Shown here: positions 7,448 to 62,496 of the stretch, piece by piece | Position numbering within the stretch: the stretch's first letter is position 1 | Layout of the letters: every line of letters starts with the position of its first letter | IMG/VR virus record: IMGVR_UViG_3300020156_000022 | Coordinates: 40,983 to 104,982 of that record | Direction: 5' to 3' (one strand) | DNA from: a virus | Length of the DNA: 64,000 nucleotides | The notes under the pieces: model-generated | The model's database searches: none | What the model was told of the DNA's origin: nothing | Seen by the model: only the letters and a program-made list of their open reading frames with translations | Program-made: the position numbers and the translations under genes

Positions 7448-7454
7448 ATCTACT

Positions 7455-7644: not shown

Positions 7645-7650
7645 GCACCT

Positions 7651-7679
7651 AGCCTACAGGACTCTGACAGGATCGTCAA
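7651..7679 (-). promoter_or_regulatory. Promoter of leaderless gene
   Basis: TTGACG (7674-7679), 17 bp, TAGGCT (7651-7656), then AGGTGC and ATG. Confidence 0.75.
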
Positions 7680-7692
7680 GGCTACGTATCTG

Positions 7693-7896
7693 TTATTTCT
7701 TAAATCTTCCTCGGCCTATAGCTCGTTGACTAATCAAATCAAGTAACTGCTCACGAATATCCATATTACGATTAAGAATTTTACGAGTATTAGCGATAGT
7801 AGTCTGACAGTTTGCTATGGCCGTCTCGACATCTAATAACTCTTCAGACAACTCTTTATCTGACCAATCACCGTAATCTGGTTGTTCAGTAAGCAT
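7693..7896 (-). CDS. Small coiled-coil protein (67 aa)
   Basis: Acidic N-terminus then heptad-like DKELSEELLDVETAIANCQT, and a basic end (AIGRGRFKK). Lies 4 nt after the dCTP deaminase gene. No family recognised. Confidence 0.55.
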   Translation of the reverse strand: MLTEQPDYGDWSDKELSEELLDVETAIANCQTTIANTRKILNRNMDIREQLLDLISQRAIGRGRFKK

Positions 7897-7900
7897 TTAT

Positions 7901-8506
7901 CTATTCCTTTTCATTTGGGTAAACATCATAGATCTTAAAATTATCAAAGGATCGGCTTATAGTTGGCCCAGCCTGGTACTGATAGTGCGATCCAGCTGCT
8001 CTTGAACCATACAACAAAGTAGTCGGCTCTGGTAAGTGGTAGAAGCCAAGTTGACTAACTTTCATACCTGGCCATAACAACAAAGGCATAGTTCCACTAT
8101 TACTTAATTCTAAGGTAATTTGCCCTTCAAATCCTGGATCAATAAACCCCGCAGTAGCATGAATAACCAACCCTAGCCTGCCTAAAGAACTTTTACCCTC
8201 AAGCTTAGCGGCTATGTTAGCACCTAATGCAATAGTTTCAAAGGTACAACCTAGCACAAATGCTCCTGGCTCTAATACAAATGCAGAACCCTTTGGAACA
8301 AATACATCTGTAAAGTAATCAGTTGAGTCTTCTTTAGGATCTACCAACGGCGCGTCCGCAGGGGAATCAAATTGTAACTGTACCTTAAACTCAGGAGAAA
8401 GTGTCATATCATAACTGGCAGGCTGAATTAGCTCTTCCCTGAAAGGCTGGATGATAATATTTTGGAATCTAATCTCTTCAAGAATTCCTCTATTAGATAC
8501 TAGCAT
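7901..8506 (-). CDS. dcd: dCTP deaminase
   Basis: 201 residues, usual length for Dcd. The core EGKSSLGRLGLVIHATAGFI followed by DPGFEGQITLEL is the trimer-interface active-site block of the dCTP deaminase/dUTPase fold; QPASYDMTLSPEF near the start is the usual Q-P-x-S-x-D-x-x-L motif. It converts dCTP to dUTP, feeding dTMP synthesis together with the phage dUTPase (30182) and dCMP deaminase (23784). Overlaps the preceding gene by 14 nt. Confidence 0.93.
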   Translation of the reverse strand: MLVSNRGILEEIRFQNIIIQPFREELIQPASYDMTLSPEFKVQLQFDSPADAPLVDPKEDSTDYFTDVFVPKGSAFVLEPGAFVLGCTFETIALGANIAAKLEGKSSLGRLGLVIHATAGFIDPGFEGQITLELSNSGTMPLLLWPGMKVSQLGFYHLPEPTTLLYGSRAAGSHYQYQAGPTISRSFDNFKIYDVYPNEKE

Positions 8507-8732
8507 GATCTTCTCTCCATTCTAGTTTCACCTTGCCGCTTTCATGGAAAGCAAGATCAAGTATGGTATTATTATATACCTTTACCAGATCAATCTCAAT
8601 CTTTTTACCTAAAGGTACATATTTTCTTAGCAATGCCGCTGCGACAGCCTCATAGATTCTTACTTTTTCTTCAAGCACATCAAAAGACCTGGATGCTAGG
8701 TACTCATCCAGGTCTATAAATTCATTTGACAT
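8493..8732 (-). CDS. Hypothetical protein (79 aa)
   Basis: Overlaps dcd by 14 nt, so probably co-translated. Contains DEYLASRSFDVLEEKVRIYE and KIEIDLVKVYNNTILDLAF; acidic, mixed alpha/beta. Not recognised. Confidence 0.55.
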   Translation of the reverse strand: MSNEFIDLDEYLASRSFDVLEEKVRIYEAVAAALLRKYVPLGKKIEIDLVKVYNNTILDLAFHESGKVKLEWREDHASI

Positions 8733-8750
8733 TACTTACCTTTCTCAAGA

Positions 8751-8822
8751 AAATAGGAGCCGCATCGACAAACAACTTGCGGATCTTTGCCTACAAGTTA
8801 TCCTGGAGGTTGGCTCCTATTT
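8751..8822 (-). terminator. Long nested hairpin, probable terminator
   Basis: AAATAGGAGCC (minus 8822-8812) pairs perfectly with GGCTCCTATTT (8761-8751), enclosing a second stem AACTTG/CAAGTT. The 3' arm continues into TTTTCTT. It fills the gap between the nuclease gene and the gene at 8732. Confidence 0.55.
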
Positions 8823-8823
8823 G

Positions 8824-9174
8824 CTAGTATGCCTTATATTCAGCATGTCCAGCACTGACCATTCGATCATTGATGCTAGGAGTTTTAGTAGGGTCTTCTC
8901 CCCAAAGCCATAACTCTCCTAAATATCGGCCATACTTTTCTTTTTTATCCTTGGTAGTCATAACATATAGATACTTAAAACTACCATCAGGATTAGTAAG
9001 TAATTTCAATAACCATGCCCTGGCATTCTTACCGGCTTGTGTGGGTAGCTCAGGAGCATTAATTCTGTTGAATCTAATATGCATGTCTTGAAGAAGATCA
9101 CAACCAGCGTCTCGCCTTATTGTGATTGTATCAGCATCATAGACAGTTAAGATTTCAGCAGGGTAATCATACAT
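8824..9174 (-). CDS. SNase-like (thermonuclease fold) nuclease
   Basis: About 116 residues from ATG 9174, which has GGGAG 7 nt upstream; a longer frame exists but would start inside the structured RNA at 9212. The pattern follows staphylococcal nuclease: ILTVYDADTITIRR, IRFNRINAPEL (R at the active site), KNARAWLLKLL, then EKYGRYLGELWL and SINDRMVSAGHAEY. These enzymes cut DNA and RNA with calcium. No signal peptide, so it acts inside the cell, perhaps in host DNA breakdown. Confidence 0.85.
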   Translation of the reverse strand: MYDYPAEILTVYDADTITIRRDAGCDLLQDMHIRFNRINAPELPTQAGKNARAWLLKLLTNPDGSFKYLYVMTTKDKKEKYGRYLGELWLWGEDPTKTPSINDRMVSAGHAEYKAY

Positions 9175-9211
9175 ATTTATCTCCCATCGTATAAGAGATA
9201 AATCGGTAATA

Positions 9212-9293
9212 ATTGAGGGTTGCAACTTCCAGTACAGCCGTGCAGCTTTCCCGGTTAACCAGATAGCTTTCTCACCTGTTCGTGGACCTCAAT
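9212..9293 (-). ncRNA. Structured leader RNA
   Basis: ATTGAGG (9293-9287) pairs with CCTCAAT (9218-9212), enclosing TCCA/TGGA, ACAG/CTGT and CTGG-TTAA-CCGG in nested order. It begins 4 nt after tRNA-Cys and ends before the SNase RBS. Could be a leader controlling the nuclease or a processing spacer. Confidence 0.35.
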
Positions 9294-9296
9294 AAG

Positions 9297-9375
9297 AGCA
9301 GATAGGCGGAATCGAACCGCAGACATAAGACGCCTTTTGCAGAGGCGCGGCTATCACCAATAACCTTCTATCTGC
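9297..9375 (-). tRNA. tRNA-Cys(GCA)
   Basis: Acceptor GCAGATA/TATCTGC, anticodon stem CGCCT/AGGCG with loop CTGCAAA giving GCA, T-loop TTCGATT, and discriminator U, an identity element for tRNA-Cys. Confidence 0.92.
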
Positions 9376-9410
9376 ACGTAAAGAATAATATTATTCTTTA
9401 CTAATAGAAT

Positions 9411-9521
9411 TTACTTTTTACCAGTACCTTTACATGCATTACAATCTATAGGAGGAAGACTATTACGTTCAAAAAACCCTCTACCTCTACATGACATACA
9501 TATTTCTTTTTCTTTTTCCAT
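9411..9521 (-). CDS. DnaJ-type zinc-knuckle microprotein (36 aa)
   Basis: ATG starts 2 nt after tRNA-Thr(GGT). Two CxxCxGxG repeats, CMSCRGRG (8-15) and CNACKGTG (27-34), make up nearly the whole protein: half of a DnaJ cysteine-rich domain, one zinc site. The spacing between the repeats fits the DnaJ hairpin. Function unknown. Confidence 0.6.
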   Translation of the reverse strand: MEKEKEICMSCRGRGFFERNSLPPIDCNACKGTGKK

Positions 9522-9522
9522 G

Positions 9523-9597
9523 AGCCACCAGAGAGAATCGAACTCTCGACCTTTTCCGTACCAAGGAAACACTCTGACCAAACTGAGCTATGGCGGC
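9523..9597 (-). tRNA. tRNA-Thr(GGT)
   Basis: Acceptor GCCGCCA/TGGTGGC, T-arm GAGAG-TTCGATT-CTCTC, anticodon stem TTTCC/GGAAA with loop TTGGTAC giving GGT (ACC/ACU). Discriminator U. Confidence 0.93.
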
Positions 9598-9684
9598 AAA
9601 ACTAGTTTTTAGAAGCAGCCATTTCCCTTCCGGGCGGTACTGTGGAGAGACCCTTAGTTTCAAGGCTGAACTAGAAACCTTCCG

Positions 9685-9759
9685 AGCGGCCAGTGTGGCT
9701 CGAACACACTACTCTCTGCTTACGAGGCAGGGGCTTTAACCTGATTAAGCTACAGCCGC
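9685..9759 (-). tRNA. tRNA-Thr(CGT)
   Basis: Acceptor GCGGCTG/TGGCCGC, T-arm GTGTG-TTCGAGC-CACAC, loop CTCGTAA on a CTGC/GCAG stem giving CGT (ACG). Confidence 0.92.
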
Positions 9760-9763
9760 AATA

Positions 9764-9922
9764 TTAGTTAGACAATCTTTTTTGTTTTGTGCCGCAAGGC
9801 ACATGAGTAACTACCTTATTCTTGATTCTCCATCCACGAGTGCCTTTGCAATTGTCGCACACCCTAGGACCATTCTCATCAATGAGTCTTCCTCCGATTG
9901 TTGCATTATCTGTATTTGCCAT
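9764..9922 (-). CDS. Zinc-knuckle microprotein (52 aa)
   Basis: ATG just after tRNA-Gly(TCC) on the opposite side of its coordinates; ends 4 nt before tRNA-Thr(CGT). CDNCKGTRGW (22-31) is one DnaJ-like knuckle; a lone Cys at 43 (VPCGT) could complete the site only partly. Function unknown. Confidence 0.5.
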   Translation of the reverse strand: MANTDNATIGGRLIDENGPRVCDNCKGTRGWRIKNKVVTHVPCGTKQKRLSN

Positions 9923-9923
9923 G

Positions 9924-9994
9924 AGCGGAAGACGGGAATCGAACCCGCGACAAAACGTTGGAAGCGTCTTATGTTACCTCTACACCACATCCGC
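9924..9994 (-). tRNA. tRNA-Gly(TCC)
   Basis: Acceptor GCGGATG/CTTCCGC (one T-T mismatch), T-arm GCGGG-TTCGATT-CCCGT, anticodon stem AGACG/CGTTT with loop CTTCCAA giving TCC (GGA/GGG). Confidence 0.93.
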
Positions 9995-9996
9995 AT

Positions 9997-10079
9997 TGGT
10001 GCAACCGTACAGCCTGCGAGAATCTATTAGGCACGATTCTCATTGTCCTAGTGCCTGTAGGGACCAGCTTATCGGTTGC
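9997..10079 (-). ncRNA. Pseudoknotted tRNA-like RNA ending ACCA
   Basis: On the minus strand, GCAACCG (10079-10073) pairs with CGGTTGC (10007-10001), immediately followed by ACCA, like a tRNA acceptor end. Inside, TACAG/CTGTA extends the stem, and GAGAATC/GATTCTC forms a hairpin whose loop (GTGCC) can pair with the upstream linker (GGCAC), a pseudoknot. There is no T-loop or anticodon arm. It lies between two tRNA-Gly genes. Function unknown: a tRNA mimic or a processing decoy are guesses. Confidence 0.5.
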
Positions 10080-10163
10080 GTTGAGAAGTTTTCTAAGGCA
10101 TAAGCCTCGCATCTGAGCGGCCACTCTAGCATTAGCGCCCACCTATTCTCCCAAATCTCCGCG

Positions 10164-10234
10164 AGCGGCTAACGAGAATCGAACTCGTGCTTAAACCTTG
10201 GCAAGGTTTCGTGATACCATTTCACTATAGCCGC
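10164..10234 (-). tRNA. tRNA-Gly(GCC)
   Basis: Acceptor GCGGCTA/TAGCCGC, T-arm ACGAG-TTCGATT-CTCGT, anticodon stem AAACC/GGTTT with loop TTGCCAA giving GCC (GGC/GGU). Confidence 0.95.
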
Positions 10235-10243
10235 AATATTTAC

Positions 10244-10360
10244 TTATAGAAGTTTCTTGTCTATATAACCATTCTTACACTTGCCAGGACAATCTTTTAT
10301 TTTGCCTGCTTTAACTATAAAGCCCCTACCTCTACATGTCAAGCACATGACCAAGGCCAT
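10244..10360 (-). CDS. DnaJ-type zinc-knuckle microprotein (38 aa)
   Basis: Starts at ATG 10360 (an in-frame ATG 4 codons later is possible) and ends 9 nt before tRNA-Gly(GCC). CLTCRGRGF (6-14) and CPGKCKNGY (24-32) are two DnaJ-like knuckles, one with an extra residue. Function unknown. Confidence 0.55.
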   Translation of the reverse strand: MALVMCLTCRGRGFIVKAGKIKDCPGKCKNGYIDKKLL

Positions 10361-10365
10361 AAAAG

Positions 10366-10530
10366 TTAACCTCTTTTTCTAGGAGTATTCTTTACTCTTT
10401 TAATAAAGTCTTGTTGATTTTTCTTTGAAGTAGTTGCCAACAACGCAGCCGCATCTTCAAATTTCTTTTCTCTCAGAAGAGAGGCAGCAGTAAGATTAGC
10501 TTTTTTATCTAAACTGCTATGCTTTCCCAT
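10366..10530 (-). CDS. Small basic helical protein (54 aa)
   Basis: ATG at 10530 (MGKHSSLDKK) overlaps the end of the preceding gene by 14 nt; a longer upstream frame is its shadow. Lysine- and alanine-rich (LTAASLLREKKFEDAAALLA), ending NTPRKRG. Function unknown. Confidence 0.5.
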   Translation of the reverse strand: MGKHSSLDKKANLTAASLLREKKFEDAAALLATTSKKNQQDFIKRVKNTPRKRG

Positions 10531-10657
10531 TGCGCTTAGCCTCCAAGTATTCTGCTTCTGAAAGCTTTGCTTTTGCAAGGTTTCTTATAGAAGGAGTCTT
10601 AGCTGCTTTACGTGTAGCTTTATTTAATTTTGTCCAAGGATCTTTTTTCTTAAGCAT
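10517..10657 (-). CDS. Small basic protein (46 aa)
   Basis: ATG at 10657, 2 nt after tRNA-Asp. Highly basic, helical (KKKDPWTKLNKATRKAAKT, LAKAKLSEAEYLEAKR), similar in character to the next gene. Not recognised. Confidence 0.5.
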   Translation of the reverse strand: MLKKKDPWTKLNKATRKAAKTPSIRNLAKAKLSEAEYLEAKRNGKA

Positions 10658-10658
10658 G

Positions 10659-10733
10659 CGCGACTGAAGGGATTTGAACCCTCGATCTCTTGATTGACAA
10701 TCAAGTGCTTTAACCAGGCTAAGCTACAACCGC
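10659..10733 (-). tRNA. tRNA-Asp(GTC), copy A
   Basis: Acceptor GCGGTTG/CAGTCGC, T-arm GAGGG-TTCAAAT-CCCTT, anticodon stem CTTGA/TCAAG with loop TTGTCAA giving GTC; discriminator G as in tRNA-Asp. Confidence 0.95.
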
Positions 10734-10735
10734 AT

Positions 10736-10795
10736 AGAATTTTGCTGGAATCGAACCAGCGATGCAGGCTTTGCCCCGCATACCTCTCCAGAGGT
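10736..10795 (-). pseudogene. tRNA-like gene without acceptor stem
   Basis: Compact D-arm CCTC-TGGA-GAGG, anticodon-like arm GCGGG-GCAAAG-CCTGC (six-base loop), perfect T-arm GCTGG-TTCGATT-CCAGC. The 3' strand AAAATTC has no partner 5' of the D-arm. Probably decayed. Confidence 0.4.
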
Positions 10796-10859
10796 GCTGT
10801 TATATAGGAATCGAACCTACCACCATAGTGTTACCTATGTCCTCCCCAAGAGGGTCAGC
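10796..10859 (-). pseudogene. Short tRNA-like gene, six-base loop
   Basis: GCTG/CAGC ends, D-arm CCTC/GAGG, anticodon arm CATAG-GTAACA-CTATG with a six-base loop, T-arm GTAGG-TTCGATT-CCTAT. Only about 64 nt with a 4-bp acceptor. Decayed or unusual; if read with T33, the triplet would be AAC (Val). Confidence 0.4.
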
Positions 10860-10860
10860 G

Positions 10861-10933
10861 CGCTCACGACCGGATTCGAACCGGCGACTTCTTCCGTGAC
10901 AGGGAAGCACTCTTACCGCTGAGTTACGCAAGC
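10861..10933 (-). tRNA. tRNA-Asp(GTC), copy B
   Basis: Acceptor GCTTGCG/CGTGAGC, T-arm GCCGG-TTCGAAT-CCGGT, anticodon stem CTTCC/GGAAG with loop CTGTCAC giving GTC; discriminator G. A second Asp tRNA, different in sequence from copy A, so not a recent duplication. Confidence 0.92.
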
Positions 10934-11161: not shown

Positions 11162-11791
11162 TCAAGGTGCGTTTACAGCAACTATTGGAGACACATAATA
11201 AAAGGAGTTGAACACATTTAGCGATGAAGAGCTGCTAGGAGGACTGTTAGATACTCCTAGTCTAGACACTTCGTGGAAAACATTATTGGACGGTGATTTT
11301 ACCACCCACGTACCTGGAGCACCAGGGGGACTAGCAAATACATAGTGCCAAGTATACACAGCAGCAACATAATCATATGTAAACCCGTCTAATAACCTTA
11401 CGGGAGAATCAAACATAACATTATTATACTGCCCAGGTACGGGAGTAAACTCTTTACTAGCCAGAAGTGAATTATCTTGCTTACGATAAAGCATTACTCG
11501 GTGGTTAACTGTAGGTAATCCTGGATTAGGTGTGTTAGTAGGTGCGCGCCATTGAATACCTAAGCAATCTCGCTGGCCGACTCCACCAGTTAAGGCAAAC
11601 TCCGCACCCATAGCATAATACGTTGAACCATCTACACCGTCAACCCCTGTAGGTTGATAAGGCCAAGTTAATGTTTCTGTTAGAACAGGAGCACTGGCAC
11701 CAAAATCATCCCAAGCTCCTTCATAACGTACTTTACCTTGGTTACTGGCATTTACCCACGCCCCAGATCGGCGACCTTTAATTACACTCAT
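11162..11791 (-). CDS. DUF4082-like accessory tail protein
   Basis: 209 residues. The central part (GVGQRDCLGIQWRAPTNTP, then RVMLYRKQDNSLLAS and FDSPVRLLDGFTYDYVAAVY) fits DUF4082-like beta-sandwich domains that occur in surface and tail proteins. The start overlaps the stop of the tail fibre gene (ATGA), so it is probably made with it, as a fibre accessory or receptor-binding tip. No enzyme motif. Confidence 0.65.
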   Translation of the reverse strand: MSVIKGRRSGAWVNASNQGKVRYEGAWDDFGASAPVLTETLTWPYQPTGVDGVDGSTYYAMGAEFALTGGVGQRDCLGIQWRAPTNTPNPGLPTVNHRVMLYRKQDNSLLASKEFTPVPGQYNNVMFDSPVRLLDGFTYDYVAAVYTWHYVFASPPGAPGTWVVKSPSNNVFHEVSRLGVSNSPPSSSSSLNVFNSFYYVSPIVAVNAP

Positions 11792-13506
11792 GCGTCTGTA
11801 TCAATCCAAATAGATCCGTCAGGAACAGTACCAGGATCATTTGGACCAACATATATCCTGGCAGTTGAAGCTTCTACGTATGCGGAACCATTCCATAGCA
11901 TAACAACTGGTGTCATGTCTTCCACAGCAGTAACTCTGTTAGAAATTGCTGTAACAGTAGAAGTAGCTGCTTTAGCGTCTAAAGCTGTTTGAGTAGCTGT
12001 TGAAATAGGCTTATTCAAGTCTGAGGTATTGTCGACATTGCCTAAACCTACATCGCCCTTAACTAAGGTTACGGTGCCGGTTTTTCCAGCTACGCTGTCT
12101 ACAGGGAAATCTAAATCAGTTATCTGAGACTGTGTATGAGTATGGCTGGTATTAGCTTTTCCATTAAGTGCGGTTTGTGTAGCAGAGGAAATAGGCTTAT
12201 TAGCGTCAGAAGTATTATCTACGTTAGCAAGACCTACATCAGCCTTTACAAGAGTAACCACACCAGTTTTGCCTGCAACACTATCGACAGGGAAATCCAA
12301 GTCAGTAATCTGTGCCTGAGTATGGGTATGCCCTGTATTGGACTTTCCATCCAAAGCGGTCTGGGTTGCGGTACTGATTGGCTTTGATAGGTCTGAAGTA
12401 TTATCTACATTAGCCAACCCTACATCTGATTTTGTCAAAACTACATCACCAGTTCTACCGGCAACACTATCTACTGGATAATCAATGGTTGGAGTATCTT
12501 CCAAATCATTATAACTACCAGAAGTAGCTACATCTGCCAAAGATGAGATATTAGCTTTAGCATCAAGCGCAGCTTGAGTAGCAGTACTGATAGGTTTGCT
12601 TACATCAGAAGTATTGTCAACATTAGCTAATCCAACATCAGCCTTAGTTAATACAACATCACCAGTTCTGCCAGCAACGCTAGATACTTCAGATGAGCCT
12701 CCTACTGGCTTATCGAGTAAATCATTGTAACTTCCTGTAGTTGCTACAGTTGCTAAATCTGATATATTAGCCTTACTATTTAAAGCTGTTTGTGTAGCTG
12801 TGCTGACAGGCTTAGCCAGATCTGCGGTGTTGTCAACATTAGCAAGACCTACATCAGTCTTATTTAACGCTACTGCTCCTGTTTTACCCGCTACGCTAGT
12901 CACACTAGCCGTTGGAATTGTAGGCTTGTCAGCTAGGTCATTATAGCTTCCTGTAGTGGCTACAGTTGCCAATGAGCTAGTGTTCGCCTTACCCGCTAAA
13001 GCAGTATTTACCTCAGTTTCGGTATAATACCTATCATCGTGCAGGTGATCACCAAAAGCTACTTGAGAATGAGTAGTACCTACTGGCAATCGTGCAATAG
13101 ACAATACACCTGAAGTAATATCTGAAGCTGAATGCTCATGAGGCCCAGATGGTTGCTGAGTAACAGGTGCATTAACTACAGGAACTAGCTTTGATACTGG
13201 CAAGATATGATTAGGAGTATCGTAAGGAATGGCAACAGTCATAGTAGAGTAGTCACCAGACAACTTAAATACTAAGGTATAAGTCCAGCCAGAAGGAGTC
13301 CATTCAGGGTCATCGGTAGCTGGTAAAGCTACAGACACATATCCCTGAGAATTCAATGTTGCTTTGATCATAGAAGGTACTACTGTAGTAGTTCCGGCAG
13401 ATTCAAGAACATAGCCTCTGGAATAGAATTCTAAACTTCCTGACTCAGGTGTTCCATCTGCCTTTAGAAAGGTTCCTTGCACAGTAATCATTGTAGGCAT
13501 TCCCAC
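11788..13506 (-). CDS. Tail fibre protein with tandem repeats
   Basis: 572 residues. N-terminal domain (about 1-140) is beta-rich. Residues 150-530 carry about seven copies of a 45-residue repeat with VAGKTG, V.LTKADVGLANVDNT and KPIS.ATQ.AL, a well-known fibre-shaft module in phages, interleaved with TGSYNDLADKP and HTHTQSQITDLDFP. The C-terminus (VGPNDPGTVPDGSIWIDT) is a common fibre end motif. GTG start with GAGG 7 nt upstream. It probably forms the trimeric shaft for host binding, although it lies far from the other tail genes. Confidence 0.85.
   Translation of the reverse strand: MGMPTMITVQGTFLKADGTPESGSLEFYSRGYVLESAGTTTVVPSMIKATLNSQGYVSVALPATDDPEWTPSGWTYTLVFKLSGDYSTMTVAIPYDTPNHILPVSKLVPVVNAPVTQQPSGPHEHSASDITSGVLSIARLPVGTTHSQVAFGDHLHDDRYYTETEVNTALAGKANTSSLATVATTGSYNDLADKPTIPTASVTSVAGKTGAVALNKTDVGLANVDNTADLAKPVSTATQTALNSKANISDLATVATTGSYNDLLDKPVGGSSEVSSVAGRTGDVVLTKADVGLANVDNTSDVSKPISTATQAALDAKANISSLADVATSGSYNDLEDTPTIDYPVDSVAGRTGDVVLTKSDVGLANVDNTSDLSKPISTATQTALDGKSNTGHTHTQAQITDLDFPVDSVAGKTGVVTLVKADVGLANVDNTSDANKPISSATQTALNGKANTSHTHTQSQITDLDFPVDSVAGKTGTVTLVKGDVGLGNVDNTSDLNKPISTATQTALDAKAATSTVTAISNRVTAVEDMTPVVMLWNGSAYVEASTARIYVGPNDPGTVPDGSIWIDTDA
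12000..12960 (-). repeat. Fibre-shaft coding repeats
   Basis: Imperfect tandem repeats of about 135 nt encoding DVGLANVDNT and TATQTALN blocks. The copies differ in codons, so they are old; their number could still vary by recombination. Confidence 0.75.
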
Positions 13507-13520: not shown

Positions 13521-13564
13521 TAAAATAAAAATGGTAGCCGACTAATGATATAATCGGCTACCAT
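13521..13564 (-). terminator. Strong intrinsic terminator
   Basis: Perfect 11-bp stem ATGGTAGCCGA / TCGGCTACCAT (13554-13564 with 13531-13541), loop of 12, then TTTTTATTTT on the minus strand. It ends the HNH transcript before the tail fibre gene. The stem contains GCCGATTA, resembling the late -10 motif. Confidence 0.85.
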
Positions 13565-23563: not shown

Positions 23564-23593
23564 TATATTTCTCCTTATTCGATTTACTTACTG

Positions 23594-23674
23594 TACCGGT
23601 GACGAGAGTCGAACTCGCATGCCTTTCGGCCAAGGGGTTTGAATCCTCTATGTATACCATTCCATCACACCGGC
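23594..23674 (-). tRNA. tRNA-Leu(CAA)
   Basis: Class II with long variable arm GGCCGAAAGGC. Acceptor GCCGGTG/CACCGGT, T-arm GCGAG-TTCGACT-CTCGT, anticodon loop TTCAAAC gives CAA (UUG). It lies alone, 12 kb from the main tRNA region. The 110 bases between it and the deaminase gene contain nothing visible. Confidence 0.95.
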
Positions 23675-30639: not shown

Positions 30640-31359
30640 TTATCCTCTTTCCAAGGCTGCGGCAGTCATTGCGTCTTTCACAGCGACAACTCCGAGAGCG
30701 TGTAGTTGTGATACTCGTGACTCTTCTAGTGCTAGCTCTTCTGCTACTCTACGCAAATCCATTTTACCATAATAACGTAGTGCTAAAATTACTTGAATCT
30801 CTGGGGGCAAATTTTCTACTGTTGATGTCAAAATAGTCAACATATCACGTGAAAATGCTGCGCCCTCAGTATCGATAGAGTCTTGCAACTCAGGAACTAC
30901 TGAAGCATTATCTTGCACACTATTACTAAAGTGAGCTTCAAGACTAATAGGTCGTGCAGATAGTCGAGCGTAAACTTTATTAATTTCAACTACAGACATA
31001 CCTGTTTTTTCTGCTAATTCTTCTATAGGTATGCCTTCATCCTGCCCTGCGTCTTTTAGCTTTTTAGCTTTGCTCCTGAGGGTTCTCGTAGCCCAATCCT
31101 CGCGTCTGATGTGGTCACGAATTGTGCCTCTGATCCTAAGACTGGCAAATACTTTAAAAAATTGCACTGCCTTAGGATCATAGCCATTCTTCTCACAATA
31201 AGGTACCCAACGATTGGCTGCGTCGGTAAGTCCTTCGTATGCTAACGAAACCATATCATCTAACTTGAGCGCATGAGTAGCTGTCCGCCATTCTCTATTA
31301 GCTATAGTCTTAGCTAAATCTAAGTGATTTAAAATAAGCGAATCTTTATCGTAACTCAT
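30640..31359 (-). CDS. Sigma factor, FliA/WhiG type
   Basis: 239 residues, three-domain sigma70-family factor without region 1. Region 2: DDMVSLAYEGLTDAANRW, then RIRGTIRDHIRREDW, which matches the RIRG.(M/I).D.LR..DW region 2.4 of FliA/WhiG sigma factors. Region 3 includes IPIEELAEKTGMSVVEINKV; region 4: LPPEIQVILALRYYGKMDLR then VAEELALEESRVSQLHALG, a complete HTH. FliA/WhiG factors read GCCGATAA -10 boxes, and this sequence recurs before the phage late genes, so it is probably the late transcription switch. It overlaps the helicase gene by 4 nt and is thus expressed with early genes. Confidence 0.88.
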   Translation of the reverse strand: MSYDKDSLILNHLDLAKTIANREWRTATHALKLDDMVSLAYEGLTDAANRWVPYCEKNGYDPKAVQFFKVFASLRIRGTIRDHIRREDWATRTLRSKAKKLKDAGQDEGIPIEELAEKTGMSVVEINKVYARLSARPISLEAHFSNSVQDNASVVPELQDSIDTEGAAFSRDMLTILTSTVENLPPEIQVILALRYYGKMDLRRVAEELALEESRVSQLHALGVVAVKDAMTAAALERG

Positions 31360-33541: not shown

Positions 33542-33570
33542 ATTATAACAACAAAACTAGAATTGATCAA
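33542..33570 (-). promoter_or_regulatory. Sigma70-type promoter for holin-like gene
   Basis: TTGATC (33565-33570), 17 bp, TATAAT (33542-33547). About 5 nt later AGATAAG/CTTATCT forms a leader hairpin before the RBS. Confidence 0.7.
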
Positions 33571-33573
33571 GTT

Positions 33574-34653
33574 TTAAGCAATCCTAGTTACAATTAACAT
33601 TGTATATTGTTTCAATGTAGTTGTTCCTGTAGCAGAAATCTGTGCCCAGTTGATGGTAATGTTTCCTGAATCAGCCCCTACGATAATAATTCCTTTTTCG
33701 TGGAAAGAAATTGCTCCGACAGTGGTATCAGTTCCATAACCAACATCAGTATTGAAAGCATAAGAACCTACACGAGTAGCTGTAGAATCTCGGCTCGTCA
33801 TTGTTAAAGCTGGACCAGAAATCATTCTCTGTCCAACGCTTCCAGGTGGTGCCCACCAGTTAATACGGATATCTCCACCAGAAGACCCGTCAGCATGCCC
33901 AACTAATTCAACCTCATAAACGCCATTAGGTACTACAGGAATAATTAATTGAGGATCGAATGTTGGTGTAGTAGTTCCTGATCGAGAAAGGTCAGAGGTT
34001 TTATACGCTACTTGTCTCTTTCCGATTCCTCCAACATTCAGATTTCCCGCTAAGTTCAAGTCTCCTGTAAAGGTTCCATCTACATCCAAGTTTCCTGTAA
34101 CCTGAACATTACTAAAGCTACTCGACCCTGTAACAGATAACTGATTCTGAAGGCTAAGATTTCCTGTAACTGCAAGCTGATTGCTTGTAGCACGATAGAT
34201 CCTAGTTTCTGGTGCTGTAGTTCCTCCACCGATTCTGATGCCATCATGGTTGATTTCAAGAGAATGTGTTGCATGACTAGCTTGCTTGAATTTAAGCAGG
34301 GGAACAGAAGTAATAGTAGCTACTACAACGTCAAATATAGCGGCAGGAGAGGTAATACCTATACCAATTCTATTTGCTGTTCCCAACAGAATGTTGTTCA
34401 AGAAAGTAGCTCCGGCATTTAGCAAATAATTCCAGGCTGATCCAACACGAAACTTTGCTCGCCCTGTGTCAGTCTCATATGAAGCAACTCCTTCATACAT
34501 TACAGTAGGGTTGACCGCTGACGTAGACTGAACAAAGCCAACAGCGTTATCGAGCTTCTCAAGATTATCGTTAAGATCAGTAGCTACATTCATAGGTTCG
34601 CTACCATCGTCAGCAGGCATATACATGCCTACTCTTGGTGTTGTGCTAGCCAC
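33574..34653 (-). CDS. Tail fibre/spike-like protein
   Basis: 359 residues. N-terminal GMYMPADDGSEPMNVATDLN is a common start of tail proteins; the middle (about 160-205) has NLSLQNQLSVTGS, VTGNLDVDGTFTGDLNLAG repeats of a beta-helix or trimeric shaft; the C-terminal 130 residues form a beta domain (VYEVELVGHADGSSGG, IRINWWAPPGSVGQRMISG) that resembles the end of the protein at 40187. Likely a receptor-binding or decoration protein of the tail tip. Confidence 0.7.
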   Translation of the reverse strand: MASTTPRVGMYMPADDGSEPMNVATDLNDNLEKLDNAVGFVQSTSAVNPTVMYEGVASYETDTGRAKFRVGSAWNYLLNAGATFLNNILLGTANRIGIGITSPAAIFDVVVATITSVPLLKFKQASHATHSLEINHDGIRIGGGTTAPETRIYRATSNQLAVTGNLSLQNQLSVTGSSSFSNVQVTGNLDVDGTFTGDLNLAGNLNVGGIGKRQVAYKTSDLSRSGTTTPTFDPQLIIPVVPNGVYEVELVGHADGSSGGDIRINWWAPPGSVGQRMISGPALTMTSRDSTATRVGSYAFNTDVGYGTDTTVGAISFHEKGIIIVGADSGNITINWAQISATGTTTLKQYTMLIVTRIA

Positions 34654-34693
34654 TATTACCTCCTAGGTTCCCTTGTTAAATCGGCTAGAGTTG

Positions 34694-34720
34694 AAGTGTA
34701 GGTAAGTATATATTCCTAGG
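34694..34720 (+). repeat. 27-bp dispersed repeat, copy 3
   Basis: Identical over 27 bp to 20292-20318 in the polymerase gene. Here it spans the stop codon (TAG, 34716-34718) of the GDPD gene and the start of the intergenic gap. Confidence 0.8.
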
Positions 34721-35612
34721 GATGGATCAGGTTCTCAGCTTCAAGATGTTTGTTAGTGATCAATGCATCTACTCCTACGTCAGCCATCTTCTGCCAGCAA
34801 GATGCAACATCAGTTGTTGGAGAATCTGTAGTCCAAGTAAATATCTTTAATCCACTAGCCTTATACATACCTACGACTGCTTTATCTAATCTGTCATATC
34901 GAACAACATAACCTTCAGCACCAATTTGTTTGATTGTCGTAGGCAAGCGTGTCATTCCTGCGGGAGGATATTCAATAACGAAAGTTGTCACATCTGGATA
35001 GAAGTCTTCCATTGCTGTAACACTAGCTACACTACCCATGTAGACTGTCTTATTCAGGTAATTGAAACGAATAATATAATCATAAAGCTTTTGAGCCTGG
35101 GCCTGAGTAGGGATAGCTTGCATATCTAGCAGCAAGCCAACATTGGCATCACGAGCAGCATCAAAGAACTCGTAGCCATAAGGCAAGTGCAACTTATCTG
35201 TGGACGCATCTACCTTACCGTGGTATTCTGGATATTGCCAGCTACCATCAGACTTCTTTCTGTTCCAAGGATCGTAATTAGCAGCATTCAAATTTTGTGT
35301 TTGGGACAGCCACAAGTTACTTACCAGGCCAGTACCGTCAGTAGTTACACCTACATCAGACCCATGCAAAGCTACTGGGAAGTTGGATTTGTTGAAATTA
35401 ACATCAATCTCTACCCAGGTCAGATTAGAGTTTTTCTTTTTAGCTGAAACTATACCTTGAACTGAGTTTTCTGGTGCTTCTAGTGGACCTGTTTTATGGG
35501 CGATTATTACAGGAGTGTCAGATGATAGATTTGGTGCCGCAGTAGCCGGGGATGCACCAGCTACTACAACCAATAAGGTACTTACGATTGCTAATACTTT
35601 TTTCAATTTCAA
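34716..35612 (-). CDS. Secreted glycerophosphodiester phosphodiesterase
   Basis: 298 residues. A signal peptide (MKLKKVLAIVSTLLVVVAGA, then SPATAA) with a typical AxA cleavage site, followed by a GDPD TIM-barrel: IIAHKTGPLEAPENSVQGI (catalytic His, Glu/Asn), WVEIDVNFNKSNFPVALHGSD (metal Glu, Asp and His). GDPDs release glycerol-3-phosphate and can act on teichoic acids. A phage gene for an exported GDPD between tail genes is unusual; it could change the infected cell's wall or, if uncleaved, be part of the tail. Confidence 0.85.
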   Translation of the reverse strand: MKLKKVLAIVSTLLVVVAGASPATAAPNLSSDTPVIIAHKTGPLEAPENSVQGIVSAKKKNSNLTWVEIDVNFNKSNFPVALHGSDVGVTTDGTGLVSNLWLSQTQNLNAANYDPWNRKKSDGSWQYPEYHGKVDASTDKLHLPYGYEFFDAARDANVGLLLDMQAIPTQAQAQKLYDYIIRFNYLNKTVYMGSVASVTAMEDFYPDVTTFVIEYPPAGMTRLPTTIKQIGAEGYVVRYDRLDKAVVGMYKASGLKIFTWTTDSPTTDVASCWQKMADVGVDALITNKHLEAENLIHP

Positions 35613-47655: not shown

Positions 47656-48213
47656 TCAAGCTGAGCGGTTAACGATACGCCCAATTGCGCGCTTTGTTAG
47701 CGGAGTACCCTTTTCATCCTTGTCAGAAATAACTGCTCGACCTGTGTAGTTAAGCAATAGTCCAGACTTGTAGGATGGACCGGTGAAGTTAATAGGACCG
47801 AAGATCACCTTATAGAGAATGAAGTCCATAACTCTAATAGCTCCATCGCTGTCCTTGGATGGGCAGCGAATCAGCATAGGTCGAGCAGGCTGATTTACGG
47901 AATCTTCTTCCCATAGACCCATGGAGTAGGTAGTTCCTGCTCCTGAGCCAGATGAAGTCAAAGTAGCTCCAGATAGAAGCTGAATTGTACGGAATGGTAG
48001 ATAGCCAGCTTCAACGGTAACTGTGGCGAAGTTCAGCCAGAACCATGATGACAGTACGTAGTCATCACCGGTGTTATCATAGTTACCAGTATCAGCAGCA
48101 ATAGTTCCAGAACGTACACCATAAATGTCGCCAAACTCTTCCTCAGTACCGTCAGTACCATCTAAGATAGCTGCATGGCTGATAGAAAAGCCTTCAAAAT
48201 TAGTGCCAGCCAT
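47656..48213 (-). CDS. Major tail protein
   Basis: 185 residues. Beta-rich, with GTNFEGFSISHAAILDGTDG and the end region KSGLLLNYTGRAVISDKDEK; size and place (before the G/G-T pair and tape measure) fit the tail tube subunit. RBS AAGGAG upstream; a GCCGATTA motif lies 64 nt before the start. Confidence 0.75.
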   Translation of the reverse strand: MAGTNFEGFSISHAAILDGTDGTEEEFGDIYGVRSGTIAADTGNYDNTGDDYVLSSWFWLNFATVTVEAGYLPFRTIQLLSGATLTSSGSGAGTTYSMGLWEEDSVNQPARPMLIRCPSKDSDGAIRVMDFILYKVIFGPINFTGPSYKSGLLLNYTGRAVISDKDEKGTPLTKRAIGRIVNRSA

Positions 48214-48276: not shown

Positions 48277-48303
48277 TAATCGGCAAGCAGTAATAACCTA
48301 TTT
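48277..48303 (-). promoter_or_regulatory. FliA/WhiG-type promoter, major tail protein
   Basis: GCCGATTA (48277-48284) with CAAAT-type sequence 16 nt upstream, leading into the major tail gene. Confidence 0.5.
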
Positions 48304-49707: not shown

Positions 49708-49734
49708 TACTATCGGATTAAAATCAGAAAAATA
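49708..49734 (-). promoter_or_regulatory. Candidate late promoter, glycosyltransferase
   Basis: TCCGATAG (49708-49715) with AGTATTTT 11 nt upstream, close to the pair before the portal gene (AGAATTTT, N11, GCCGATAC). Confidence 0.4.
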
Positions 49735-52789: not shown

Positions 52790-53188
52790 TCAGCCCTCCC
52801 TACCTGGACGCACTACGTGAGTAGTTTTACGAGTTTTTTGCTCATCTGATTGGCCAAATTTTGCCCCGTGAACTGCTTCTAGTAACTTAACTGAAGTCTC
52901 ACTCAACTCTGTAACAATGTCGAGCTGCCTTGTCTGCATATTTACAATCTGTAACGCTTCCGCAGTTTTGTCTTTCCACTCTTGTTCACGTTCTCTGGAT
53001 TCTACTATTCTAGCTTCATAGTTAGCTTTCATCTCAGTAATACGAGCTTCCTGGGACTCATGCACCTTTTGAACAGATGCAGGAGTTAATAGCCAACCTC
53101 TTACCAAAGCAATGAACAGCAAAGGCAAAGGACCAATTGTACCAATCCAAGGCCCAATGGCATCTAATGCACCTTGTACTACCTCCAT
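52790..53188 (-). CDS. Membrane-anchored coiled-coil protein
   Basis: 132 residues. One membrane helix near the N-terminus (IGTIGPLPLLFIALVRG) then a long coiled coil (HESQEARITEMKANYEARIV) and a polar tail. This layout recurs in actinophage genomes next to head-tail genes; spanin or holin-associated roles are possible but unproven. Confidence 0.6.
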   Translation of the reverse strand: MEVVQGALDAIGPWIGTIGPLPLLFIALVRGWLLTPASVQKVHESQEARITEMKANYEARIVESREREQEWKDKTAEALQIVNMQTRQLDIVTELSETSVKLLEAVHGAKFGQSDEQKTRKTTHVVRPGREG

Positions 53189-53206: not shown

Positions 53207-53238
53207 AAAAGCCGGAACGCCCGTAAGCGCCCGGCTTT
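53207..53238 (-). terminator. Hairpin with T tract after late promoter
   Basis: AAAGCCGG / CCGGCTTT with a 15-nt loop, followed by TATCTTA. Only about 15 nt after the start expected from the GCCGATAA at 53259, so it may be a stability hairpin or attenuator rather than a simple terminator of the upstream gene. Confidence 0.6.
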
Positions 53239-53258: not shown

Positions 53259-53285
53259 TTATCGGCAGAATCATATTAAATTACA
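53259..53285 (-). promoter_or_regulatory. FliA/WhiG-type late promoter
   Basis: Exact GCCGATAA (53259-53266) with TGTAATTT 11 nt upstream (FliA-type -35 is TAAAGTTT). Leads into the coiled-coil gene and the head-tail genes. Confidence 0.6.
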
Positions 53286-54607
53286 GAAAGTTCATCCCAG
53301 CCACGCTCACCAGCAGCAAGGCCTACTACCATTCCTAGCATTCCTGGCTTAGACCAAACACCTGAAGAATCATAAAACCACTGACTTGACTTCTCAGCCT
53401 CAAGTGCAGGGCAACCAAAGAATGTACGCCCACGATCTTCGATGACATTAAAGTGGTGATAATGTGCTGTTACGAACAAAGAGGTATCAACAAGTTCTGA
53501 AGTTCTACCGAGAATTTGCTTCTCAATAGCATTCTTAGAACTTACTCCACCAGTCTTAGGCCCTGAGCCATTAGATACATGACCATGAGTGAAGTTAACC
53601 TTTACTCCTGAAAGTTCTAGGTTGGCATCTTGACGATCTGTAGCGATGTCCCACTTAATATCATCACCAACGCCTGTACCATCAAAAACTTTCTTTACAA
53701 GGCTCGCAACCATAGTAGAGGAGTTGTCATAGATACTAGTAAGGGCCTTGTTACTTCCAAAGCGCGTATGCTCACCATGATTTGACGGAACAGAAGCAAT
53801 ATTCATTCTCAAACCATCCTCTAGTAGAGTACGGATACTCCATGTACGCATATCGAAATCTAGAGTAATTTGATCAGAATAGTTCAATTCAATTTCATAA
53901 GGTTGAGAAGCATAATTACCTACTGCACCTTCGTGCTCATCTCCCATGAAGGCTAGAGCAATCTTTTCAATAGGATACCCAGCGTCAATTAAATGACGAA
54001 TTCTGAGATGGTGTCCGTTTATCCCGTTGGTCCAATTATTTAAAGCCTCCTGCGTTCCTGGCTTGCCTAATTGGGGGTCTGCAACCATAATCAGATAGCT
54101 TAGTCCAGAATTTTGAAAACTTCGTCCAGGAATGAACTCAAGATTTCGGAGATTGTCTCTCCAACCTTGGATATCCACTCGATCTTCGATCGGTGTTTCT
54201 TCTGGCGCTTTCTTTTGAATCCTAGCCGCATAACTATATCTGAATTCTCCTGGCTTGCCCCATGCCTTCATAGTAACAGGCTGAATAACTTCAAATACTT
54301 CAGGATCGAGACCCCAAAGCTTAATAGTATCTGTCCAGTCAGTAATTGGCTCATTAACTGTACCTGTTTTAATTACACCAGAATCACCAGTTAGTGAAAC
54401 ACTAGGTAATTCTCCGCCAGCCAATCGGCTAGGCTCATCTACAAGATTGTCAGCAGTACCTAGAAGGTATTCTCGGCCTGCATACTCGCGCCTACGACGC
54501 TTGAGTGTTTCAAGGTTGGATTCTGGGAAAGCCAGTAGCAAATCTTCATCTGTCATAGCAGCTAGAAGTTTAGCTACATTCTCTTCATTCCATTCAATCT
54601 TTGACAA
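53276..54607 (-). CDS. Metallophosphoesterase
   Basis: 443 residues. N-terminal about 130 residues helical (VAKLLAAMTDEDLLLAFPES, LETLKRRRREYAG) and then a linker; from about 160 the calcineurin-like fold: MVADPQLGK (D), FMGDEHEG (GDxxE), VPSNHGEH (NHGE), FTHGH (GH), VTAHYHH (GH-type). All metal ligands are present. Substrate unknown: phosphoesters in RNA, DNA or nucleotides. TTG start with AAGGAT 9 nt upstream; promoter at 54659. Confidence 0.82.
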   Translation of the reverse strand: MSKIEWNEENVAKLLAAMTDEDLLLAFPESNLETLKRRRREYAGREYLLGTADNLVDEPSRLAGGELPSVSLTGDSGVIKTGTVNEPITDWTDTIKLWGLDPEVFEVIQPVTMKAWGKPGEFRYSYAARIQKKAPEETPIEDRVDIQGWRDNLRNLEFIPGRSFQNSGLSYLIMVADPQLGKPGTQEALNNWTNGINGHHLRIRHLIDAGYPIEKIALAFMGDEHEGAVGNYASQPYEIELNYSDQITLDFDMRTWSIRTLLEDGLRMNIASVPSNHGEHTRFGSNKALTSIYDNSSTMVASLVKKVFDGTGVGDDIKWDIATDRQDANLELSGVKVNFTHGHVSNGSGPKTGGVSSKNAIEKQILGRTSELVDTSLFVTAHYHHFNVIEDRGRTFFGCPALEAEKSSQWFYDSSGVWSKPGMLGMVVGLAAGERGWDELSVI

Positions 54608-56553: not shown

Positions 56554-56681
56554 AAGAGTCTCCTTAATAATTAGGGCGCACAAAATGCTGTCCCAAAAAA
56601 TTATCAGCGACCCCGTAAGGCCCGACCTGCACTGCCAAAAAGGCTCAACCAGTTGGTCTAACTATTGTCATTCTTTTCTAA

Positions 56682-56709
56682 TTATCGGCAGTTCTTTTTC
56701 TGAACTGCT
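56682..56709 (-). promoter_or_regulatory. FliA/WhiG-type promoter, major capsid
   Basis: Exact GCCGATAA (56682-56689). -35 candidate AGCAGTTC lies 12 nt upstream within a GCAGTTC/GAACTGC hairpin. The leader to the capsid gene is about 130 nt and carries ACTGCC/GGCAGT arms. The 130 bases hold no gene. Confidence 0.6.
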
Positions 56710-58698: not shown

Positions 58699-58725
58699 CT
58701 ATCGACAGAAAAAGGGACTGCAATT
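58699..58725 (-). promoter_or_regulatory. Weak late-promoter-like site
   Basis: GTCGATAG (58699-58706), one base away from GCCGATA at two positions, directly after the terminator and before the gene at 58671. Confidence 0.3.
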
Positions 58726-59175: not shown

Positions 59176-59700
59176 TTAGACAGTGCGACTAAACTGGGCT
59201 AGACGCTCAATTTCAGCGGTTACATCTGTCTCTTCTACCTTATTCTCGTTAGCCTCGACAGAGGTTCCTACTTCCTTGCCACTTAGATTAACTAGAGGCT
59301 CAGAAGGTACTAACTTTTCATACAGACTCTTATTTGTCATGTAAAGCTCAGTCATAGGACCTTCATTTGCTGGCTCAATAAAACCATCACGAATCTTGGT
59401 CTTAACTTCGAACTTAGCTTCATTCTCAAGACTATTCTTTTCAAGCTTCTCAATACGATTTGAAAGCTCTACATTATCCTTGGCAAGTTCAACAACTGCT
59501 CCAACAACCTGCTCAACATTCTCAGCAGCATTATCATTGGATAGCTTTACTACGCCTAGGTCAGTCAAAGTAGCAACTAGCTTGTTTGAAAGCTCAGCCG
59601 CAGGATCAGTATCCTGTGGCTTGGTTGCCTCGGCCTGAAGAGCATCAACGTCAATGCCGTGCTCATTCTTTAGAGCCGCAATTAGCTCTTCCTTAGTCAT
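59176..59700 (-). CDS. Nested scaffold protein (internal start)
   Basis: An internal ATG at 59700 (MTKEELIAAL), in frame with the protease gene, has AGGAG 9 nt upstream and would give a free 174-residue scaffold, as lambda Nu3 within C. An exact GCCGATAA at 59795-59802 lies about 95 nt before it. Inferred, not proven. Confidence 0.55.
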   Translation of the reverse strand: MTKEELIAALKNEHGIDVDALQAEATKPQDTDPAAELSNKLVATLTDLGVVKLSNDNAAENVEQVVGAVVELAKDNVELSNRIEKLEKNSLENEAKFEVKTKIRDGFIEPANEGPMTELYMTNKSLYEKLVPSEPLVNLSGKEVGTSVEANENKVEETDVTAEIERLAQFSRTV

Positions 59701-60327
59701 TGTCTTGTGCTCCTCTACCTCTGGTTCTTCTGCGGAACCGGTATTGTCAATTTCTTCTACAGCCGGTTCAGTTAGAAGAACCGCTTCATCTGAATTATCG
59801 GCTGATGCCTTAACAATTTCTTCGTAATCCTCTAAATTAGTAATGTAGGGACGATTAGTCACAGCTACATGACATAAAGTAGGGCCAGCCCTCTTGCCGG
59901 TGGAAGTATCAGTATAATCCAAGGACAACATGGCAGAAGCACCAATGTAAGTCTTATTCTTAAACTTTTCAACAGCCTTAGGATCACGTGCATCAATAAC
60001 AGCATAAACTTTATTGTTCTTGACTTCGATATCAACTACTTCGCCGACATTTCTGTCTGGGTTTTCCACATGCTGATTTGAATCGTTGGCAAGAGGTACT
60101 TGAACAATGTCACATACCTTATTGTCGAAGTTCATCTTCAACTTAGTTACGAAAGCATCGTCAATCTTAATACGTGCACCAGTAGCAGGATGAATCAAAT
60201 CGCCCTTATTAAGAATATGCTTCCTGAACAAGGTGCCGCTACTTTTGCGAGATAACTCAACATTAGCTTCTGACATTTCATCATAAGCTGTGCCATCCTT
60301 GCTCGGAATAATAACAAAATCATTCAC
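59176..60327 (-). CDS. Prohead protease-scaffold fusion
   Basis: 383 residues. The N-terminal part (about 1-175) is protease-like: GTLFRKHILNKGDLIHPATG, KTYIGASAMLSLDYTDTSTG and LCHVAVTNRPYITN, as in Mu I/Lambda C-type serine proteases. From about 190 the protein is acidic and helical (AALKNEHGIDVDALQAEATK, VEQVVGAVVELAKDNVELSN), a scaffold. GTG start with GGAGG 6 nt upstream. The protease would cut the scaffold during head maturation. Confidence 0.75.
   Translation of the reverse strand: MNDFVIIPSKDGTAYDEMSEANVELSRKSSGTLFRKHILNKGDLIHPATGARIKIDDAFVTKLKMNFDNKVCDIVQVPLANDSNQHVENPDRNVGEVVDIEVKNNKVYAVIDARDPKAVEKFKNKTYIGASAMLSLDYTDTSTGKRAGPTLCHVAVTNRPYITNLEDYEEIVKASADNSDEAVLLTEPAVEEIDNTGSAEEPEVEEHKTMTKEELIAALKNEHGIDVDALQAEATKPQDTDPAAELSNKLVATLTDLGVVKLSNDNAAENVEQVVGAVVELAKDNVELSNRIEKLEKNSLENEAKFEVKTKIRDGFIEPANEGPMTELYMTNKSLYEKLVPSEPLVNLSGKEVGTSVEANENKVEETDVTAEIERLAQFSRTV
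59795..59821 (-). promoter_or_regulatory. Internal GCCGATAA site
   Basis: Exact GCCGATAA inside the protease gene (codons A-D-N), upstream of the nested scaffold start. Could be chance. Confidence 0.35.
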
Positions 60328-60357: not shown

Positions 60358-60384
60358 AGATCGGCAGAATTTAAATTTCCCCCA
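60358..60384 (-). promoter_or_regulatory. Candidate late site before protease gene
   Basis: GCCGATCT (60358-60365) followed by TTGGCA, which can fold back (TGCCGA/TTGGCA) just before the RBS. -35 match is poor. Confidence 0.35.
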
Positions 60385-62451: not shown

Positions 62452-62460
62452 TGAATCCTC

Positions 62461-62490
62461 CTGCCGACATCTTTTTTAAGTATCGGCAGG
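62461..62490 (-). promoter_or_regulatory. Hairpin and GCCGATAC before portal
   Basis: CCTGCCGA / TCGGCAGG (8 bp) enclose a 14-nt loop directly before the portal RBS AGGAGG. GCCGATAC (62480-62487) forms the 5' arm; AGAATTTT lies 11 nt upstream of it. Either a late promoter or a translational hairpin. Confidence 0.45.
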
Positions 62491-62496
62491 AGATTC

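What the first reader, a model, noticed from the sequence alone, without database searches (positions are those of the whole stretch)
30640..31359. Phage FliA/WhiG-type sigma factor matched to GCCGATAA sites before late genes
Seen: a sigma factor whose region 2.4 (RIRGTIRDHIRREDW) is of the FliA/WhiG type, and a family of GCCGATAA-like motifs on the minus strand before late genes: 62480 (portal), 60358 (protease/scaffold), 59795 (nested scaffold), 58699, 56682 (capsid), 53259 (head-tail), 49708 (glycosyltransferase), 48277 (major tail), 34678 (tail fibre), 13551. Two of the intergenic ones are exact GCCGATAA. Established: FliA and WhiG read TAAA-N15/16-GCCGATAA. Inference: the phage carries its own developmental-type sigma to switch on late genes. 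It could also exploit or block host WhiG promoters used in sporulation. -35 matches are weak, and three sites lie in hairpins, which is the main alternative explanation.
Basis: partly seen in the sequence, partly recalled or inferred. Interest (0 to 1): 0.9.

Follow-up and report, generated by a model that had tools for sequence, protein, structure and literature searches.

The report
Phage late sigma with flagellar-type -10 promoters
A family of soil phages (one cultured relative infects Microbacterium) carries its own flagellar/sporulation-type sigma factor, and a conserved flagellar-like promoter word (CCGAT) lies before the phage's shell and tail genes, which suggests that the phage redirects the host's RNA polymerase to its late genes.

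Summary
Window 30640-31359(-) encodes a 239-aa sigma factor whose best curated family is FliA/WhiG (TIGR02479, E=3e-31, but below that family's cut-off). Unbiased k-mer counting upstream of late genes returns CCGAT/GCCGAT/TGCCGAT as the top words; upstream of the other genes it returns TTGACA, the host-type -35. The motif is not a one-genome accident. Before portal, scaffold, capsid, tail-tube and other late genes it sits at matching places in about ten related phages, including GC-rich ones (CCGATAA; CGATATCCCTG in Microbacterium phage Magritte), and it recurred in a phage examined afterwards. The FliA -10-recognition region (E. coli R74, D81, R84, D87, R91, R94) is invariant across the divergent phage sigmas, all encoded at the same place between a helicase and dnaB. 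A flagellar -35 (TAAA) is absent at every spacing, so these look like -10-only promoters, as in T4 and phiEco32. In GC-rich relatives ORFs often start exactly 7 nt after the motif, where a leaderless transcript would begin. Hairpins are not the general explanation: only the portal one is conserved, and it hides the ribosome site much as in T4 gene e. Hijacking of host WhiG sporulation promoters has no support. Transcription itself remains untested.

The parts
30640..31359 (-). phage sigma factor, 239 aa, FliA/WhiG-type; regions 2, 3 and 4 present
33542..33570 (-). sigma70-like promoter TTGATC-17-TATAAT before the small gene, helicase and sigma; a similar site in G005 (TTGACT-17-TATACT)
   Evidence: consensus match only
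62480..62487 (-). predicted late -10, GCCGATAC, before portal gene
   Evidence: present in all 9 close-relative contigs that hold the locus
62457..62493 (-). conserved hairpin whose 3' arm holds the portal Shine-Dalgarno and whose 5' arm holds the -10
60358..60365 (-). predicted late -10, GCCGATCT, before protease/scaffold gene
   Evidence: also in G010, Magritte, G014
59795..59802 (-). predicted internal late -10, GCCGATAA, inside protease/scaffold gene
   Evidence: CGAT kept at this place in G004, G005, G007, G010, Magritte with different codons in the distant ones
59176..59700 (-). putative nested scaffold ORF (174 aa) with its own Shine-Dalgarno (GAGGAG), 3' of the internal -10
   Evidence: weak Mu I-protein match of the full protein
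56682..56689 (-). predicted late -10, GCCGATAA, before major capsid gene
56609..56658 (-). conserved structured leader RNA between the capsid -10 and the capsid gene
   Evidence: no Rfam family
53259..53266 (-). predicted late -10, GCCGATAA, before small late gene 52790-53188
   Evidence: also out-of-sample in G016
49710..49717 (-). predicted late -10, TCCGATAG, before glycosyltransferase gene
48277..48284 (-). predicted late -10, GCCGATTA, before the tail-tube-like gene 47656-48213
34678..34685 (-). predicted late -10, GCCGATTT, before tail gene 33574-34653
13551..13558 (-). predicted late -10, GCCGATTA, before distant tail-repeat gene 11788-13506
58699..58706 (-). weak candidate GTCGATAG before gene 58333-58671; outside the CCGAT class

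Best explanation
The phage makes its own late sigma factor, derived from the FliA/WhiG (sigma-28) branch. A host-type sigma70 promoter first transcribes the helicase-sigma region. The sigma then joins host core RNA polymerase and directs it to about nine promoters defined by a -10 element (T)(G/A)CCGATWW without a -35 element, starting transcripts about 7-8 nt downstream. These feed the portal, scaffold (and nested scaffold), capsid, head-tail and tail genes. At the portal gene, starting inside a conserved hairpin would also free the ribosome site, so that read-through RNA is silent and late RNA is translated. Shown here: the protein, the motif, its enrichment, its conservation at matching places, the absence of TAAA, and invariant recognition residues. 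Inferred: binding, transcription start sites, timing, and the portal switch.
For: Sigma: FliA_WhiG is the best NCBIfam family for all five phage sigmas tested (E 3e-31 to 3e-14); best PDB relatives are WhiG and FliA. R74, G77, D81, R84, D87, R91, R94 (E. coli FliA numbering) are invariant in all phage sigmas aligned although overall identity to FliA is 20-28%. Sigma is encoded between helicase and dnaB in every relative holding the region. Motif: top-ranked de novo word upstream of late genes, while TTGACA ranks top elsewhere; footprints at portal, scaffold, capsid, gene 52790, glycosyltransferase, tail tube and 359-aa tail gene; CCGATAA 14 sense:2 antisense in G010 and CGATATCCCTG 10:0 in Magritte. 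Out-of-sample: in G016 3 of 3 expected loci; in G014 CCGAT before portal, scaffold, capsid, the 175-aa gene and tail tube. Spacing: 6 of 24 sites in Magritte+G010 have an ATG/GTG of a >=50-aa ORF exactly 7 nt downstream, where about 0.016 per site is expected. Capsid leader RNA begins just after the -10.
Against: No transcript data. The core is short, so single sites, especially TCCGATAG or those outside the late cluster, may be chance. FliA_WhiG curated cut-off is not reached (108.8 vs 189.6 bits). Some late upstream regions carry sigma70-like words, in this phage more than expected (5 of 16 vs 0.4). G011 shows only a weak TCGATA signal and G014 no significant genome-wide strand bias. Published warning: a sequence-only late-promoter prediction for phage 7-11 (PMC4331800) was replaced after experiment by a different, bipartite consensus (PMC8948821).
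Confidence: 0.86

Rival explanations
1. CCGAT is the binding site of another phage or host regulator (activator, repressor, anti-terminator) of late genes, and the sigma acts elsewhere.
For: No -35 partner; Magritte's conserved word is 11 bp, CGATATCCCTG, longer than a usual -10.
Against: The core equals the established FliA/WhiG -10 (PMC8325347) and the one sigma found in this phage belongs to that branch with the recognition residues kept; ORF starts lie exactly 7 nt downstream in relatives, which fits a -10.
Confidence: 0.08
2. The conserved words are parts of RNA hairpins (terminators, processing or translation control), not promoters.
For: Portal site lies in a strong conserved hairpin (pairing probability 0.79-1.0); several other sites can pair in single lineages.
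Against: At capsid, glycosyltransferase and other loci pairing of CCGAT is low or variable (0.07-0.6) while the word is conserved; hairpin arms next to the capsid site change completely between lineages.
Confidence: 0.04
3. Host FliA/WhiG-type sigma reads the sites; the phage sigma is for other promoters or is a competitor.
For: The core matches the cellular flagellar -10 (PMC8325347).
Against: Cellular promoters of this class have a TAAA -35, absent here; the phage keeps its own sigma in every relative checked that holds the region; the -10 core shifts within this phage family (CCGATAA, TCGATA, CGATATCC), as expected if it follows a phage protein.
Confidence: 0.04

Closest known systems
Cellular FliA (sigma-28) / WhiG sigma factors, consensus -35 TAAA, -10 GCCGATAA (PMC8325347)
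   Same: Best family match, FliA R74/D81/R84/D87/R91/R94 conserved, -10 core CCGATAA
   Different: 20-28% identity to E. coli FliA, below the curated family cut-off; no TAAA -35; targets are phage virion genes; region 4.2 diverges in distant members
Phage T4 late transcription (gp55/gp33/gp45; PMC2988020)
   Same: Phage sigma for late genes; single -10 element, no -35
   Different: T4 uses a TATA-type element and splits sigma between gp55 and gp33; here the sigma keeps regions 2-4 and the word is a GC-containing flagellar-type one; no clamp coactivator was identified
phiEco32 gp36 / 7-11 gp47 late sigma factors (PMC4331800, PMC8948821)
   Same: Phage sigma, promoters before late genes; phiEco32 has a single 9-bp element with starts 6-8 bp downstream
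   Different: Different words (tAATGTAtA; GTAAtg-16-aCTA); described as distant sigma-A relatives rather than FliA/WhiG type
T4 gene e (lysozyme) translation control (PMC3014915)
   Same: Read-through RNA would hide the Shine-Dalgarno; a late promoter inside the hairpin would give RNA without the 5' arm
   Different: Here at the portal gene and only predicted
Sporulation-type sigma factors of Bacillota phages (PMC9429907)
   Same: Phage-borne developmental-type sigma
   Different: Those alter host sporulation; no sign of that here

Membership tests
FliA/WhiG sigma subfamily (TIGR02479) | best-matching sigma subfamily | tested here: met
   E=3.2e-31, ahead of SigBFG, RpoH, RpoS and others; same for four relatives
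FliA/WhiG sigma subfamily (TIGR02479) | score above the curated cut-off | tested here: not met
   108.8 bits against 189.6; hence 'FliA/WhiG-type', not filed as a member
FliA/WhiG sigma subfamily (TIGR02479) | region 2.4/3.0 recognition residues | tested here: met
   R74, G77, D81, R84, D87, R91, R94 invariant; that these contact DNA is from memory
FliA/WhiG promoter class | -10 GCCGATAA before target genes | tested here: met
   (core CCGAT with W-rich tail)
FliA/WhiG promoter class | -35 TAAA 15-16 bp upstream | tested here: not met
   no enrichment at spacers 11-19 in three groups
FliA/WhiG sigma subfamily (TIGR02479) | control by an anti-sigma (FlgM, RsiG) | not tested
   no dedicated search was made
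Phage-encoded late sigma factors (functional class) | dedicated motif before late genes, host-type promoters elsewhere | tested here: met
Phage-encoded late sigma factors (functional class) | directs host core polymerase to late promoters | not testable with these tools
   needs in vitro transcription and start-site mapping

The most novel reading that the evidence does not exclude
A phage lineage turned a FliA/WhiG-type sigma into a late switch that has shed its -35 element, reads only a -10 whose sequence drifts with the phage lineage, makes leaderless late mRNAs in GC-rich members, frees the portal ribosome site by starting inside a hairpin, and starts capsid transcripts with a new conserved structured leader RNA.
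Probability: 0.4. Interest if true: 0.75.

Novelty: new variant of a known kind. Interest (0 to 1): 0.62.

Why it matters
Late gene control is poorly known in large phages of this kind, and sigma specificity in phages is rarely predictable from sequence. Here a sigma and its promoter word can be named together across a family that spans 43-67% GC, so sigma-promoter co-evolution can be tested directly. A cultured member exists (Magritte on Microbacterium foliorum), where gp47 is annotated only as 'DNA binding protein' and ten candidate sites are exact repeats of an 11-bp word.

Tried and rejected
Bipartite flagellar promoter: TAAA scanned at spacers 11-19, no enrichment. Hairpins as the general cause: rejected except at the portal site. 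Rfam match for the capsid leader: none. Sigma search in IMG/VR with the single protein found nothing and the first alignment was too diverse; a closer alignment worked. Closest hits in bacterial genomes were weak (24-33% identity), so no cellular donor can be named. A structure model (pLDDT 77, pTM 0.42) matches FliA, WhiG and other sigma chains by Foldseek E-value but with low TM-scores, probably because the domain arrangement is not fixed; used only as support. Genome-wide strand bias of CCGATAA in G014 was not significant (4:1). The idea that a W-to-H/P change in region 3.0 explains the shift of the -10 in Magritte/G011 was dropped: another relative breaks it. Papers on FliA DNA contacts were not found, so residue roles are from memory.

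Full report
WHAT IS THERE. The window is 64 kb of a 105-kb virus record; nearly all genes run on the minus strand. Window 31359-30640(-) encodes a 239-aa protein with region RIRGTIRDHIRREDW. Pfam finds Sigma70_r4 above cut-off, PHROGs a sigma family, PDB sequence search finds WhiG and FliA first (E about 1e-15 to 1e-14), and NCBIfam ranks FliA_WhiG first (E=3.2e-31), though well below its curated cut-off.

RELATIVES. Capsid and sigma searches gave related contigs: close ones (G004, G005, G007, L006, L007, L010-L015, L019, G016; about 43-44% GC where measured) and distant ones (G010, 61.5% GC; G014, 66.7%; G011, 49%; Microbacterium phage Magritte, 64%). The sigma gene lies between the helicase and dnaB in every relative whose record holds that region. 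In Magritte it is annotated 'DNA binding protein'.

IS THE MOTIF REAL. Exact GCCGATAA occurs 4 times in the window, all on the coding strand; shuffles give 1.2. That alone is modest, so I asked without prior: which words are over-represented upstream of genes? In this phage's late cluster CCGAT (8 of 17 regions, 0.47 expected), GCCGAT and TGCCGA lead. Pooled with two relatives the top 5-, 6- and 7-mers are CCGAT, GCCGAT, TGCCGAT, while non-late regions give TTGACA, the host-type -35, as top 6-mer. CCGAT in late vs other upstream regions: 7/16 vs 9/71 here (p=0.008), 22/45 vs 20/169 pooled (p=3e-7, genomes related).

FOOTPRINTS. At orthologous genes the word stays while flanks change: portal and scaffold in all close relatives holding them; capsid in all close relatives plus G010 (ACCGATAA), G011 (ATCGATAG) and G014 (TCCGATGA); gene 52790, tail tube, glycosyltransferase and the 359-aa tail gene likewise in the close relatives. 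A site inside the protease/scaffold gene is kept in G004, G005, G007, G010 and Magritte although the amino acids differ between the distant phages. It precedes a nested in-frame ORF with a ribosome site, as in Mu-like protease/scaffold pairs (the Mu comparison is mine). Genome-wide, CCGATAA is 14 sense:2 antisense in G010 and CGATATCCCTG 10:0 in Magritte. Two phages were examined after the rule was set: G016 has the word at all three expected loci, G014 before portal, scaffold, capsid, the 175-aa gene and tail tube.

PROMOTER ANATOMY. Column statistics show clear information only in (G/A)CCGATWW in this clade, TCCGATAA in G010 and GGYCGATATCCCTG in Magritte; TAAA is not enriched at any spacer from 11 to 19. 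In Magritte 3 of 10 and in G010 3 of 14 sites have an ATG or GTG of an ORF of at least 50 aa exactly 7 nt after the 8-mer, against 0.016 expected per site. This fits a start about 8 nt after the -10 and leaderless late mRNAs there. T4 late and phiEco32 promoters are also -10-only (PMC2988020; PMC8948821).

WHY THIS SIGMA. Only one sigma region-4 gene was found in the record. FliA R74, G77, D81, R84, D87, R91 and R94 are invariant across five phage sigmas at 20-28% identity to E. coli FliA, whereas region 4.2 diverges in Magritte and G011, in keeping with a lost -35. The cellular -10 of this class is GCCGATAA (PMC8325347). Sigma is preceded, across a small gene and the helicase, by TTGATC-17-TATAAT; G005 has TTGACT-17-TATACT at the matching place.

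HAIRPINS. The portal -10 lies in the 5' arm of a 13-bp hairpin whose 3' arm holds the Shine-Dalgarno, conserved in seven lineages. A start about 7 nt downstream would drop the 5' arm, the trick documented for T4 gene e (PMC3014915). At other sites pairing is variable.

CAPSID LEADER. Between capsid -10 and capsid gene lies a leader with 17 consensus pairs, 11 of them with changes on both sides, 98.4% of cells paired, 0 of 500 shuffles as good on the covariation score. No Rfam family matches.

LIMITS. All inference is from sequence. A sequence-only prediction for phage 7-11 (PMC4331800) was replaced after experiments (PMC8948821). Relatives are not independent samples. Several late regions here also hold sigma70-like words, notably before an endonuclease VII gene and an exonuclease-like gene sitting in the late cluster. 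G011 is weak.

VERDICT. A FliA/WhiG-type phage late sigma with -10-only promoters: a new variant of a known kind (phage late sigma factors). I found no paper describing a FliA/WhiG-type one, within an open-access library only. The sporulation-hijack idea has no support.

Noticed in passing
window 56609-56658 (-): Conserved structured leader RNA before the major capsid gene in 11 aligned phages (43-67% GC); 11 of 17 pairs show compensatory changes; not in Rfam.
   Followed up: partly
window 62457-62493 (-): Conserved hairpin hiding the portal Shine-Dalgarno, with the predicted -10 in its 5' arm: possible T4 gene e-like timing control.
   Followed up: partly
window about 53208-53238 (-): Hairpin AGCCGGGCGCTTACGGGCGTTCCGGCT between the predicted promoter at 53259 and its gene, with sequence changes in both arms among relatives; terminator-like, yet downstream of a promoter.
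   Followed up: no
L026/L058 (Microbacterium phage Magritte OR553905): 5340, 18361, 70406: CGATATCCCTGACATGAG with the ATG 7 nt after the -10: predicted leaderless late mRNAs; gene 9 probably starts at the ATG at 5353, not at 5332.
   Followed up: partly
L025 19968-20708 (Magritte gp47): Annotated 'DNA binding protein'; it is the sigma factor of this family.
   Followed up: yes
window 54684-55451 and 53276-54607 (-): Endonuclease VII-like and exonuclease-like genes inside the late cluster have sigma70-like promoter words instead of CCGAT.
   Followed up: no
window 59176-60327 (-): Protease/scaffold gene (weak Mu I-protein match) with internal predicted promoter and nested ORF from 59700.
   Followed up: partly
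window 34716-35612 (-): Tail-module protein with a glycerophosphodiester phosphodiesterase domain, possibly cell-wall teichoic acid or lipid degrading.
   Followed up: no
window 131-10933 and 23593-23674 (-): Twenty tRNA genes, one with an undetermined anticodon (6146-6215).
   Followed up: no
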